The position numbers were made by a program, and so were the translations under genes. A stretch of 64,000 bases of DNA, taken from positions 2,585 through 66,584 of the forward strand of contig JADBJK010000025.1 in the NCBI GenBank assembly GCA_014874485.1. The letters run 5' to 3'. The notes under the pieces are model-generated. The model did no database searches, was not told the DNA's origin, and was given only the letters and a program-made list of their open reading frames with translations. Origin of the DNA: Chloroflexota bacterium (GTDB lineage: Bacteria; Chloroflexota; Anaerolineae; DTLA01). This document shows positions 1 through 63,150 of the stretch, one piece after another (the first letter of the stretch is position 1; each line of letters begins with the position of its first letter).

Positions 1-213
1 AAGGCACGTGCGACGCACCTCCGAGGTGCGTCGCACGGGGGCCGACCGGATGACTTCGCTTCGCTCGCAATGACAGAGGGGTGTCATTGCGAGGGCGCGG
101 AGCGCCAGATTGCTTCGCTTCGCTCGCAATGACAGAGGGGTGTCATTGCGAGGGCGCGGAGCGCCCGAAGCAATCTCCGAACGTGGGATTGCTTCGCTTC
201 GCTCGCAATGACA
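1..213. repeat. Palindromic repeat cluster A
   Basis: Two repeat families lie side by side. Bases 8-36 are a near-perfect palindrome: a 14-base arm GTGCGACGCACCTC, a one-base centre and its reverse complement. From about 50 onward come alternating inverted copies of a second element, recognised by TGTCATTGCGAG, an inner mini-hairpin (GGCGCGGAGCGCC) and GAAGCAATC. The same two families recur at 21.0, 25.1, 39.7, 58.8 and 62.7 kb, and the palindrome alone at 48.9 kb. Bases 214-329 hold no gene or clear signal apart from a weak CGGGCA/TGCCCG hairpin downstream of the S1 gene. Confidence 0.85.
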
Positions 214-329
214 ACAGGCAATTTCCCCTGTGGTCAACGGCTAGGGCTGTGCAAGGCCTGCTGTGCCCCCTACGGGCAGCGGGCAGGGCTTTGCCCGTCA
301 GCCGGATGCGCTTCAGAGTCGGGCGGGCT

Positions 330-20407: not shown

Positions 20408-20779
20408 CTACACGAGTCGCTCCACGGTCTTCAGGAGTTCCGCAGGGTTGACGGGCTTGGAAATCCAGCCGTCCACGGACAGGGATTCGTCCGTGGGGAA
20501 GAGTTGTGCGTGCGGCGTGTTGGCGATGGAGGTAACCATGACAATCGGGATGTGTTTCAGTTCAGGGTCTTCGCGCATGACCTGGCTGACGTTCAGGCCA
20601 TCCAGCACCGTGGCCATCATGATGTCCAGCAGGACGATGTCGGGCTTGTCGGCGCGCATGCGTGCCAGGGCCTGATCTCCGTCCGCCGCGGTGGTTACCA
20701 CGTGTCCCTTGGATTCCAGCACCGTCCGAGAAATCTCCACAAAATCGGGGTCGTCATCCACTACCAGCACTTTCGCCAT
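20408..20779 (-). CDS. Single-domain response regulator (ALFPTDE type)
   Basis: A 123-residue receiver with VDDD at 7-10, acceptor Asp52 in LLDIMMA and Lys in ISKPV. It shares MMATVLDGLN and the loop AQLFPTDESLSVDGW with the neighbouring receiver, so the two are likely duplicates that diverged. AAGGAGGG fixes the start at 20779 and excludes a long upstream extension. First gene of the minus-strand run leading to fdhA, behind the best sigma70-type promoter seen in the window. No DNA-binding domain: it must act through a partner. Confidence 0.9.
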   Translation of the reverse strand: MAKVLVVDDDPDFVEISRTVLESKGHVVTTAADGDQALARMRADKPDIVLLDIMMATVLDGLNVSQVMREDPELKHIPIVMVTSIANTPHAQLFPTDESLSVDGWISKPVNPAELLKTVERLV

Positions 20780-20825
20780 TTTGCCCTCCTTGTTTCGCAT
20801 GAGCGGCGGGCCGCGGCTTCCATAA

Positions 20826-20872
20826 AGACGATCGTCTAATTGCATTATAGCACAGGATACGAAAAATGTCAA
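20826..20872 (-). promoter_or_regulatory. Consensus promoter with a palindrome over +1
   Basis: Minus strand: consensus TTGACA (20872-20867), 17-base spacer, consensus TATAAT (20849-20844) preceded by TG. The predicted start (about 20837) lies at the edge of the 12-base palindrome AGACGATCGTCT (20837-20826), well placed for a repressor operator. It drives the receiver genes and possibly the fdh region. Confidence 0.7.
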
Positions 20873-20924
20873 TACCCTTCTGAAATGTTGCGAAAATCGC
20901 ACATTGCGTTCCGCCGCGCAAGGC

Positions 20925-20952
20925 AAACAAAAACGGGGCACAAGGCCCCGTT
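20925..20952 (-). terminator. Intrinsic terminator
   Basis: On the minus strand the stem AACGGGGC, a 5-base loop and GCCCCGTT is followed by TTTGTTT. It lies beyond the repeat cluster downstream of the M23 peptidase gene and just upstream of the receiver promoter, so it would isolate the two transcription units. Confidence 0.65.
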
Positions 20953-21008
20953 CTTCGTGCGGCGGTGCAGACCGGGCTACTACTCTACCACAAGGCTTCT
21001 TGCTGGGA

Positions 21009-21313
21009 TGTCATTGCGAGGGTGCGTAGCCCCGAAGCAATCCCCGGAATGCGAGATTGCTTCGCTTCGCTCGCAATGACAGGCCCAAGTTGTCATTGCG
21101 AGGGGCGTAGCCCCGAAGCAATCCCCGCACGCTGTCATTCTGAGGCGCTCAGCGCCGAAGAATCTCCCCAAGTGAGATGCGTCGCTTCGCTCAGCATGAC
21201 AGAGAGGGCTCGGGATTGGTTCGCTCGGCTCGCAATGACGTGAGAAGGCACGTGCGACGCACCTCCGAGATGCGTCGCACGTGGGCCGGCTGGACTGCTT
21301 CGCTCGCAATGGC
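21009..21313. repeat. Palindromic repeat cluster B
   Basis: Three or more inverted pairs of the TGTCATTGCGAG element, including variants with inner hairpins GGCGCTCAGCGCC and GGGGCGTAGCCCC and one TGTCATTCTGAG copy, followed by the GTGCGACGCACCTC palindrome (about 21247-21285, one mismatch). The 560-base interval 20780-21341 contains no gene; besides this cluster it holds only the receiver promoter and a terminator. Confidence 0.85.
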
Positions 21314-21341
21314 GGCGGGCAATTGCCCCTGTGGTCAAGTG

Positions 21342-25033: not shown

Positions 25034-25091
25034 CGGTTTCCTCCCCAAAGGTGTTGATTGCCCTGCTACTTGGCCAAAGAGAAGATAGCCG

Positions 25092-25312
25092 TGTCATTGC
25101 GAGCGAAGCGATCCAGTCGGCCCACGTGCGACGCACCTCCGAGGTGCGTCGCACGTGCCTTCTCGCGTCATTGCGAGCGAAGCGAAGCCTCTCGGTTGGC
25201 GAGATTCTTCGGCGCTTCGCGCCTCAGAATGACAGTCTGCTGGGATTGCTTCGGGGCTTCGCTCCTCGCAATGACAACTTCTGCCTGTCATTGCGAGCGA
25301 AGCAATCTTCTC
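25092..25312. repeat. Palindromic repeat cluster C
   Basis: Contains a perfect palindrome at 25123-25157 (arms CACGTGCGACGCACCTC, one-base centre) flanked by inverted copies of the TGTCATTGCGAG and GTCATTCTGAGGCGC elements. The 400-base gap 25034-25433 otherwise holds only a promoter for the next gene. Confidence 0.85.
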
Positions 25313-25369
25313 CACAGTCCGACGTGCTTCGCCCGCGATGGCCGCGGCCGGATTCACCTGCCCCGCCGG

Positions 25370-39679: not shown

Positions 39680-40152
39680 TGTCATTGCGAGGGGCGAAGC
39701 CCCGAAGCAATCCCCGCCCTGTCCCTGTCATTCTGAGCGGCGAAGCCGCGAAGAATCTCGTCAACCGAGATTGCTTCGCTTCGCTCGCAATGACAGATGG
39801 GGTGTCATTGCGAGGGGCGAAGCCCCGAAGCAATCCCCAGGGTGCGAGATTGCTTCGCTTCGCTCGCAATGAGAGATGGGGTGTCATTGCGAGGGGCGAA
39901 GCCCCGAAGCAATCCCCGCCCTGTCCCTGTCATTCTGAGCGGCGAAGCCGCGAAGAATCTCGTCAACCGAGATTGCTTCGCTTCGCTCGCAATGACAGAT
40001 GGGGTGTCATTGCGAGGGGCGAAGCCCCGAAGCAATCCCCAGGGTGCGAGATTGCTTCGCTTCGCTCGCAATGAGAGATGGGGTGTCATTGCGAGGGGCG
40101 AAGCCCCGAAGCAATCTCCAGGGTGCGAGATTGCTTCGCTTCGCTCGCAGTG
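39680..40152. repeat. Repeat cluster D: two 202-base tandem units plus a partial third
   Basis: The element TGTCATTGCGAGGGGCGA starts at 39680, 39882 and 40084, so two units of 202 bases are near-identical and a third is truncated. Within a unit, inverted pairs of TGTCATTGCGAG/CTCGCAATGACA alternate with a TGTCATTCTGAGCGG variant whose inner hairpin is GCGGCGAAGCCGC rather than GGGGCGAAGCCCC. The whole 536-base gap 39654-40190 is this array; no gene is present. Confidence 0.9.
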
Positions 40153-40190
40153 GCAGCCCAGTGGCAGCAGGCGGCCTTCGCGCGGGTTCG

Positions 40191-48844: not shown

Positions 48845-48899
48845 TTTGCCTTCGCGCCGACGAGGTTTTGTCTCCTGTGGTGAACCACACACACCGGCC

Positions 48900-48940
48900 T
48901 TTCAGTTGCGACGCACCTCTGAGGTGCGTCGCAACTGAAA
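48900..48940. repeat. Isolated copy of the GCGACGCACCTC palindrome
   Basis: Perfect inverted repeat with 20-base arms (outer TTTCAGT, inner TGCGACGCACCTC) around a one-base centre. The inner part equals the copies at 8, 21.2, 25.1 and 62.7 kb; the outer bases differ but still pair. It lies between the HI0933-type gene and the csp promoter. Confidence 0.85.
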
Positions 48941-49024
48941 CCCCATTTCTGGCCGTCTCCAACGGACTCTGGAACCGCAACTTCGCGCCGATGAGGTTTT
49001 GCGGGGCGGCCCTGCGTGGGCGGT

Positions 49025-58751: not shown

Positions 58752-58780
58752 AACTCTGCCACAGGGGATTCTTGATAGTT

Positions 58781-58964
58781 TGTCATTGCGAGGGCGCGCA
58801 GCGCCCGAAGCAATCCCGGTAGGTTGTCATTCTGAGGCGCAGAGCGCCGAAGAATCTCGCCAACCGAGATGCTTCGCTTCGCTGATGCTTCGCTTCGCTG
58901 ATGCTTCGCTTCGCTCAGCATGACAGATAGGGCGTGAGATTGCTTGGCTCCGCTCGCAATGACA
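58781..58964. repeat. Palindromic repeat cluster F
   Basis: An inverted pair of TGTCATTGCGAG elements (inner hairpin GGGCGCGCAGCGCCC) with a TGTCATTCTGAG variant (inner GGCGCAGAGCGCC). Inside it the 16-base unit GATGCTTCGCTTCGCT occurs three times in tandem at 58868-58915. The 282-base gap between PBP2 and ychF contains nothing else. Confidence 0.85.
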
Positions 58965-59033
58965 ACGGGTAATTCTCTCTGTGGCAAGCCGTAGCGGCCG
59001 CACGCAGCGCGTGCATAGAAACGGAGGTATGCC

Positions 59034-62722: not shown

Positions 62723-63150
62723 CACATGCGACGCACCTCCGAGGTGCGTCGCATGTGCCTTGTACTGTCATTGCGGGCGAAGTGAAGCGCCTCGGAGGGC
62801 GAGATTCTTCGCGGCTTCGCCGCTCAGAATGACAGGGTGGGGATTGCTTCGGGGCTTCGCCCCTCGCAATGACACCCCCATCTGTCATTGCGGGCGAAGT
62901 GAAGCGCCTCGGAGGGCGAGATTCTTCGCGGCTTCGCCGCTCAGAATGACAGGGTGGGGATTGCTTCGGGGCTTCGCCCCTCGCAATGACACCCCCATCT
63001 GTCATTGCGGGCGAAGTGAAGCGCCTCGGAGGGCGAGATTCTTCGCGGCTTCGCCGCTCAGAATGACAGGGTGGGGATTGCTTCGGGGCTTCGCCCCTCG
63101 CAATGACACCCCGTCTGTCATTGCGGGCGAAGTGAAGCGCCTCGGATGCC
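62723..63150. repeat. Repeat cluster G: palindrome plus tandem 117-base units
   Basis: A perfect palindrome at 62723-62757 (arms CACATGCGACGCACCTC) is followed by units starting TGTCATTGCGGGCGAA at 62766, 62883, 63000 and 63116: three units of 117, 117 and 116 bases and a truncated fourth. Each unit has inverted TGTCATTGCG/CGCAATGACA ends and inner hairpins GCGGCTTCGCCGC and GGGGCTTCGCCCC. The 529-base gap 62695-63223 has no gene. Confidence 0.9.

What the first reader, a model, noticed from the sequence alone, without database searches (positions are those of the whole stretch)
48900..48940. Palindrome family whose arms covary between copies
Seen: copies near 8-36, 21247-21285, 25123-25157, 48900-48940 and 62723-62757 share the core TGCGACGCACCTC. 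The bases outside it change from CACG to CACA to CAGT on the left, and the right side changes to match (CGTG, TGTG, ACTG). Such compensation means pairing, not sequence, is preserved, or that the element recombines as a hairpin.
Basis: seen in the sequence. Interest (0 to 1): 0.6.

Follow-up and report, generated by a model that had tools for sequence, protein, structure and literature searches.

The report
Compact REPIN-like palindromes with matching transposase
A short DNA palindrome scattered about 211 times through this bacterial genome belongs to a wider class of tiny elements whose two arms change in step and which lie beside one lineage of single-strand DNA transposase, so it is probably a miniature mobile element copied by that enzyme and carried further inside other repeats.

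Summary
TGCGACGCACCTCNGAGGTGCGTCGCA occurs 211 times in the 3.74-Mb genome (reversed control 0) and 32-34 times in two sister species. Among 63 own-genome copies, positions ±14 show 10 two-sided, pair-preserving changes against 2 one-sided; the rest of the 35-nt element changes mostly on one side. The pairing is real but confined to ±14/15.

The predicted RAYT exists. The genome's Y1 transposase gene, in two halves at two contig ends, has the palindrome on both sides. Homologues in other genomes, including one from Ignavibacteria, have their own palindromes within 20-100 bp or inside the gene, all of one design: two inverted 15-nt units 1-5 nt apart (usually 3), each able to form a 6-3-6 mini-hairpin. 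This is a REPIN squeezed to 33 nt, without the GTAG foot. Palindrome and transposase sequences diverge together, and within one genome both arm-arm and intra-arm pairs covary.

At least 42 of 63 own copies sit in a larger GTCATTGCGAG-type composite. Empty sites in the sister species show composites, and the flagged copy, inside insertions flanked by 10-31-bp direct repeats. The palindrome itself rarely has such repeats. So: a REPIN-like element cognate to a RAYT, here mostly spread as a passenger. Mobilisation by the RAYT is inferred.

The parts
5..39 (.). palindrome copy, 35-nt form, centre 22, one mismatch at ±16
21249..21283 (.). palindrome copy, centre 21266, one right-arm mismatch (GAGATGCG), inside a GTCATTGCGAG-type composite
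25123..25157 (.). palindrome copy, centre 25140, perfect 17-bp arms, inside a composite
48900..48940 (.). flagged palindrome copy (CAGT/ACTG type), perfect 20-bp arms; contains the 33-nt two-unit core
48850..48870 (+). left direct repeat CTTCGCGCCGACGAGGTTTTG flanking the insertion that holds the flagged copy
   Evidence: single copy in sister species G002 (L213:3926-3946)
48981..49001 (+). right direct repeat CTTCGCGCCGATGAGGTTTTG
48871..48980 (.). 110-bp segment (with the flagged palindrome) absent from G002
62723..62757 (.). palindrome copy (CACA/TGTG type), centre 62740, beside GTCATTGCGGGCGAAG tandem units
21005..21340 (.). composite repeat: GTCATTGCGAG/GTCATTCTGAG modules + palindrome, ending in GGCAATTGCCCCTGTGGTCAA
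25075..25330 (.). composite repeat carrying the palindrome at 25140

Best explanation
The palindrome is a REPIN-like non-autonomous element: two inverted 15-nt REP units 1-5 nt apart (usually 3), giving a 33-nt near-perfect hairpin. Its cognate enzyme is a Y1 (HUH) RAYT transposase of one distinct clade. Shown: the family exists; its copies covary; in the own genome and others this RAYT clade lies next to, or contains, palindromes of this design; palindrome and RAYT sequences diverge together; each 15-nt unit is also self-complementary. Inferred: the RAYT recognises the single-stranded hairpin (15-bp stem, or the two 6-bp mini-hairpins) and copies or moves it at the replication fork. Palindromes drift at some positions but stay symmetric because asymmetric copies are not re-mobilised, and/or because hairpin-templated repair and conversion between copies rewrites both arms at once. 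In this genome a palindrome became part of a GTCATTGCGAG-type composite repeat, and most of the rise from about 33 to 211 copies came from that composite spreading, by a process that leaves direct repeats of about 10-31 bp. The RAYT gene here is split across two contig ends at an inserted repeat array, so it is probably interrupted and the family partly orphaned.
For: Own RAYT N-half (C8:162-392) and C-half (C95:107-448), each with ACGTGCGACGCACCT-CCA-AGGTGCGTCGCACGT about 76-100 bp away, one upstream and one downstream. Same or near-same palindrome beside RAYT homologues in A05DMB24 (61% id), Ignavibacteria (57%) and Caldilineales (52%). 37 of 57 RAYT loci have a palindrome within 150 bp or inside the gene; about 60 in 48 kb near against 14 in 101 kb further off, and none in shuffles once one locus with runs of N is set aside. 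Intra-arm pairing averages 3.85 of 6 against 1.61 with permuted letters; no shuffle reached it. RAYT and arm distances correlate, r 0.28, p 0.001. Genome G451: arm-arm pairs perfect in 25 of 25 listed copies with three positions varying; intra-arm 5-11 pair T-A 18, C-G 6, mismatch 1 (Fisher 4e-5). All palindrome-bearing RAYTs above the score cut-off, apart from the divergent L203, fall in one supported clade. ±14: 10 two-sided against 2 one-sided changes. Tandem 160-bp units in L161 differ in the 80 bp right of centre only at +14, with the matching change at -14.
Against: No transposition was observed. 20 of 57 RAYT loci show no such palindrome nearby. The sister species keep 32-34 palindromes; no RAYT was found there, although the query was only the 77-aa N-terminal half. 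The orthologous CAGT-type copy in G002 has uncompensated changes, and most own-genome changes outside ±14/15 are one-sided, so there is no continuous selection on pairing at every locus. No GTAG or other guide tetranucleotide was identified. Fold energies favour the long hairpin strongly, so the mini-hairpin form may not be populated.
Confidence: 0.82

Rival explanations
1. The palindrome is simply an internal segment of a larger MITE-like repeat (GTCATTGCGAG composite) moved by a DDE-type transposase with long target duplications; the RAYT is incidental.
For: At least 42 of 63 own copies sit in the composite; the CAATGACGTGAGAAGG module is followed by the palindrome or a deletion of it every time it was found; empty sites show 10-31-bp direct repeats round three composites and round the insertion holding the flagged copy.
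Against: About a third of own copies show no composite flank in the 25 bp tested. The palindrome occurs without the composite around RAYT genes in other phyla, and in G002 a lone palindrome sits at the orthologous RAYT site. Copies outside composites generally have no abutting direct repeats (2 of 171).
Confidence: 0.3
2. The paired outer changes reflect only the mechanics of DNA palindromes: template switching in the hairpin or conversion between copies rewrites both arms in one step, with no selection on pairing.
For: Few one-sided intermediates at ±14 (2 against 10); neighbouring 160-bp tandem units differ symmetrically at ±14; orthologous copies decay by one-sided changes.
Against: Does not by itself explain conserved intra-arm (6-3-6) pairing across RAYT lineages or its covariation within G451, or the tight link to RAYT genes.
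Confidence: 0.35
3. The palindromes are transcription terminators or RNA stability hairpins kept for gene expression.
For: Intergenic location (39 of 42); copies at 48920 and 62740 lie downstream of the 3' ends of HI0933-like and PPIase/ACT genes.
Against: No T-run follows the flagged hairpin; no Rfam match; near-identical sequence at 211 places and absence from the sister species at orthologous loci fit a mobile repeat, not a locus-specific terminator. The copy at 25140 lies upstream of the glpX gene.
Confidence: 0.07

Closest known systems
REPIN (Bertels & Rainey 2011, PMC3116915)
   Same: Inverted pair of REP units forming a long hairpin, many intergenic copies, compensatory changes between the two sides, proximity to a RAYT, proposed alternative long-hairpin and 'clover' folds.
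   Different: Spacer usually 3 nt (1-5) instead of tens of nt (71 bp between the invariant 16-mers in P. fluorescens GI); whole element 33-35 nt; units are 15-nt 6-3-6 hairpins; no GTAG end.
TnpA-REP subclass 2.6 (Bertels RAYT group 5) in Quentin et al. 2018, PMC6006769
   Same: Class 2-type Y motif YIHxNP; genes flanked by non-GTAG 'atypical secondary structures' with copies elsewhere in the genome; a Bacteroidota protein (Aureibacter, YIHQNP) falls in our clade.
   Different: That paper calls the structures weak and places the subclass mostly in Bacteroidetes. Here they are near-perfect 15-bp palindromes, mostly in Chloroflexota-type genomes, and the W of the WQ motif is F ([NT]H[YF]H - F[EQ] - YIHxNP). 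Their profiles were not on hand, so assignment is by motif only.
Double-foot REPs of subclass 2.4 (same paper)
   Same: Symmetric long hairpins, possibly from central deletion of an inverted REP dimer; REPs also inserted in frame inside tnpA-REP genes, as seen here in L125, L127, L133, L172, L194 and L197.
   Different: Those end in GT[AG]G...C[TC]AC; ours end in A...T, typically AGAC...GTCT or ACGT...ACGT. Y motif YIxNNP there, YIHxNP here.
GTAG- and CGTC-tagged REPs (Di Nocera et al. 2013, PMC3733652)
   Same: Short intergenic palindromes, dimers in inverted orientation, RAYT link for the GTAG kind.
   Different: No GTAG or CGTC terminal motif here.

Membership tests
REPIN / REP element | High copy number, dispersed, intergenic | tested here: met
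   211 copies, control 0; 39 of 42 classified copies intergenic
REPIN / REP element | Two inverted REP units able to form one long hairpin | tested here: met
   15-nt units, intra-arm pairing 3.85 of 6 against 1.61 null; DNA folds
REPIN / REP element | Same element next to a RAYT gene in the same genome | tested here: met
REPIN / REP element | GTAG (or GTGG/CGTC) tetranucleotide at the foot | tested here: not met
   ends read A...T, AGAC...GTCT or ACGT...ACGT in RAYT-linked copies
REPIN / REP element | Binding, cleavage or mobilisation by the RAYT | not testable with these tools
   needs biochemistry
RAYT / TnpA-REP (Y1 HUH) protein | Y1_Tnp (PF01797) domain with HuH and Y...NP motifs | tested here: met
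   PF01797 over cut-off in the own genome; NHYH and YIHRNP in the two halves; most homologues NH[YF]H / YIHxNP
RAYT / TnpA-REP (Y1 HUH) protein | NCBIfam REP-associated tyrosine transposase cut-off | tested here: not met
   NF047646 70.2 bits for the 192-aa homologue against a cut-off of 80: related, outside the equivalog
TnpA-REP subclass 2.6 / group 5 | Membership by subclass profile | not testable with these tools
   profiles not held; motif comparison only
MITE of a DDE transposase | Element abutted by target duplications | tested here: not met
   for the bare palindrome 2 of 171; met for composites and the insertion holding the flagged copy
MITE of a DDE transposase | Terminal inverted repeats of an identified partner transposase | not tested
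   composite ends look like CCACAGGGA...TCCCTGTGG; no partner sought
Rho-independent terminator | GC hairpin followed by a T run | tested here: not met
   the flagged hairpin is not called

The most novel reading that the evidence does not exclude
A distinct, cross-phylum REPIN type: nested palindromes of about 33 nt whose two arms and two half-arms all stay complementary while the sequence drifts with its transposase, so that one sequence can fold as a long hairpin or as two mini-hairpins, with recognition by a RAYT clade that uses no GTAG guide.
Probability: 0.5. Interest if true: 0.65.

Novelty: new variant of a known kind. Interest (0 to 1): 0.5.

Why it matters
How REPs and REPINs spread is still unproven, and work has centred on GTAG-tagged elements of Proteobacteria. 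Here is a minimal version, with many independent transposase-palindrome pairs in which sequence changes while pairing is kept at two levels. That gives a ready set of natural variants for testing what a RAYT reads: the long hairpin, the mini-hairpins or the sequence. The tandem units in L161 and the sister-species empty sites also allow a direct test of whether palindrome arms are rewritten in one step, which matters for reading covariation in DNA as evidence of selection.

Tried and rejected
Long direct repeats as a hallmark of palindrome insertion: suggested by four empty sites and the G002 RAYT site, but a test of 171 copies found only 2 with abutting repeats, so the idea was dropped for the bare palindrome. 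Preference for convergent gene ends: my codon-based gene caller gave 19 of 42, but Pfam showed it calls some strands wrongly (for example a response regulator at 20408-20941), so only 'intergenic' is kept. Known RNA family: none at the palindromes. RAYT relatives in viral contigs: none. Plasmid records gave only distant relatives, some with NHVH/YIELNP motifs and one (Aureibacter) inside the clade. Literature search for the palindrome or GTCATTGCGAG sequences found nothing relevant. The other two Y1 proteins of the genome (L016, L018) belong to other branches and have no copy of this palindrome in the stretch read.

Full report
OBSERVATION. The core is found 211 times in the 3.74-Mb genome at up to 3 mismatches, and never as the reversed control. 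With a slightly looser pattern the counts are 207 in the own genome, 32 and 34 in two same-genus species, 74 in one genome of another family, and 0-6 in the other relatives.

COVARIATION. In 509 kb of own sequence, 63 copies could be aligned. Pairing is sharp to ±17. At ±14 all four pair types occur, with 10 two-sided and 2 one-sided changes; at ±15 there are 3 two-sided, 1 one-sided and 1 unpaired double change. Elsewhere changes are nearly all one-sided. A tandem array of 160-bp units (L161) gives a close view: two units differ at -14 (T/G) and +14 (A/C), and +14 is the only difference in the 80 bp to the right of the centre. So the pairs are not chance, but they look like one-step changes, by hairpin-templated rewriting or by conversion from another copy, rather than slow compensation. 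The orthologous copy in sister species G002 has decayed without compensation.

TRANSPOSASE. The genome has three Y1_Tnp (PF01797) hits. One, at the end of contig C8, has the palindrome about 100 bp upstream. Its C-terminal half lies at the end of contig C95, with the same palindrome about 76 bp downstream. Both contigs break in a repeat array (GATGTGTACCACC...), so the gene is probably interrupted by an insertion near codon 77; this is inferred. At the orthologous site G002 has a lone decayed palindrome and no RAYT, and G001 has neither. Homologues in other genomes carry palindromes of the same design but often quite different sequence: AGACCTTCGAGGTCT-TGG-AGACCTCGAAGGTCT, AGCTTTGCGAAACCT-TGG-AGGTTTCGCAAAGCT, and others, 20-100 bp from the gene or inside it. 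37 of 57 RAYT loci have one; about 60 palindromes in 48 kb near, 14 in 101 kb further away, none in shuffles apart from one locus with N runs.

ARCHITECTURE. Each 15-nt arm is itself complementary end to middle: mean 3.85 of 6 possible pairs against 1.61 for permuted letters and 2.33 for partners dealt among arms. This was not selected for, because detection used only arm-arm pairing. In G451, with 68 copies of AGACYTCCGARGTYT palindromes, the search pattern left three positions free: arm-arm pairs were perfect in all 25 listed zero-mismatch copies, and the intra-arm 5-11 pair was T-A 18, C-G 6 and mismatched once. DNA folding prefers the long hairpin (-15.8 to -20.6 kcal/mol for 33-mers) over single arms (-2.2 to -4.8). 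In the own genome's form the mini-hairpin is weaker, and the ±14 variants break it while keeping the long hairpin.

CO-DIVERGENCE. Distances between RAYT proteins and between their palindrome arms correlate (32 loci, Mantel r 0.28, p 0.001). In a tree of 72 Y1 proteins the palindrome-bearing RAYTs above the score cut-off fall in one 55-row clade (97/97), apart from the divergent L203, and apart from the P. aeruginosa and Rhodospirillum plasmid relatives; a Bacteroidota protein (Aureibacter) is inside. The usual motifs are [NT]H[YF]H, F[EQ] and YIHxNP.

SPREAD IN THIS GENOME. At least 42 of 63 copies sit in a composite with GTCATTGCGAG/GTCATTCTGAG modules; the adjoining GTGAGAAGG module was never seen without the palindrome or a deletion of it. 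Comparison with G002 shows insertions flanked by direct repeats of 31 bp (L152:8593), about 18-20 bp (L152:13228) and 10 bp (L160:6351), and of 21 bp round the 110-bp segment with the flagged copy (48850-48870 and 48981-49001). Testing 171 palindromes for abutting direct repeats found only 2, so long duplications belong to the composites and special loci. Y1 enzymes of the IS200/IS605 type are not known to me to make such duplications, so a second mobilising activity is likely.

COMPARISON. Bertels and Rainey (PMC3116915) describe REPINs as inverted REP pairs with compensatory changes and two alternative folds. Quentin et al. (PMC6006769) report non-GTAG atypical structures for subclass 2.6 and symmetric double-foot REPs, also within tnpA-REP genes, for subclass 2.4. 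The element works like a REPIN and lies beside a Y1 transposase related to known RAYTs, but the GTAG foot is absent and the NCBIfam RAYT cut-off is not reached. I file it as a new variant of a known kind, not as a canonical REP.

LIMITS. Mobilisation is inferred. The sample covers about 14% of the genome. Gene orientation around copies is not settled. Subclass assignment rests on motifs.

Noticed in passing
window 46-243, 21005-21340, 25075-25330, 39680-40162, 58777-58994, 62765-63146: Arrays of GTCATTGCGAG...GAAGCAATC and GTCATTCTGAG...GAAGAATCTC modules, some ending in GGCAATTNCCCCTGTGGTCAA. Copies elsewhere in the genome are insertions with about 10-31-bp direct repeats against a sister species; no partner transposase was sought.
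   Followed up: partly
L016 (G000:C74:31451-34720): A Y1 transposase-like domain lies in frame inside a large open frame with DNA methyltransferase-like sequence, bounded by GRDVRDP/ADVSSA repeat-like peptide stretches.
   Followed up: no
L018 (G000:C120:35966-39241): Another Y1 gene between methyltransferase-like and helicase-like frames, with its own palindromes of a different kind (CTGCNGAAG...CTTCNGCAG).
   Followed up: no
L113:1-160 and L178:1-107: Repeat array GATGTGTACCACCCGCAGTCGCCCG at the two contig ends inside the RAYT gene; bounded by TGTCATTG...CAATTGACA with CGGGTT on both sides, like an insertion sequence with a 6-bp duplication.
   Followed up: partly
L245 (reverse complement, about 1390-1560): In sister species G002 a decayed palindrome at the RAYT site sits between two copies of a roughly 42-44-bp direct repeat; the RAYT cassette in the own genome is flanked by a related repeat (TACCGCGGrATCAAGTGAGCAGTGG).
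   Followed up: partly
L157, reverse-complement position 1070: A composite copy whose palindrome has lost its centre, leaving CACGTGCGTCGCACGTG, as expected from slippage in a hairpin.
   Followed up: no
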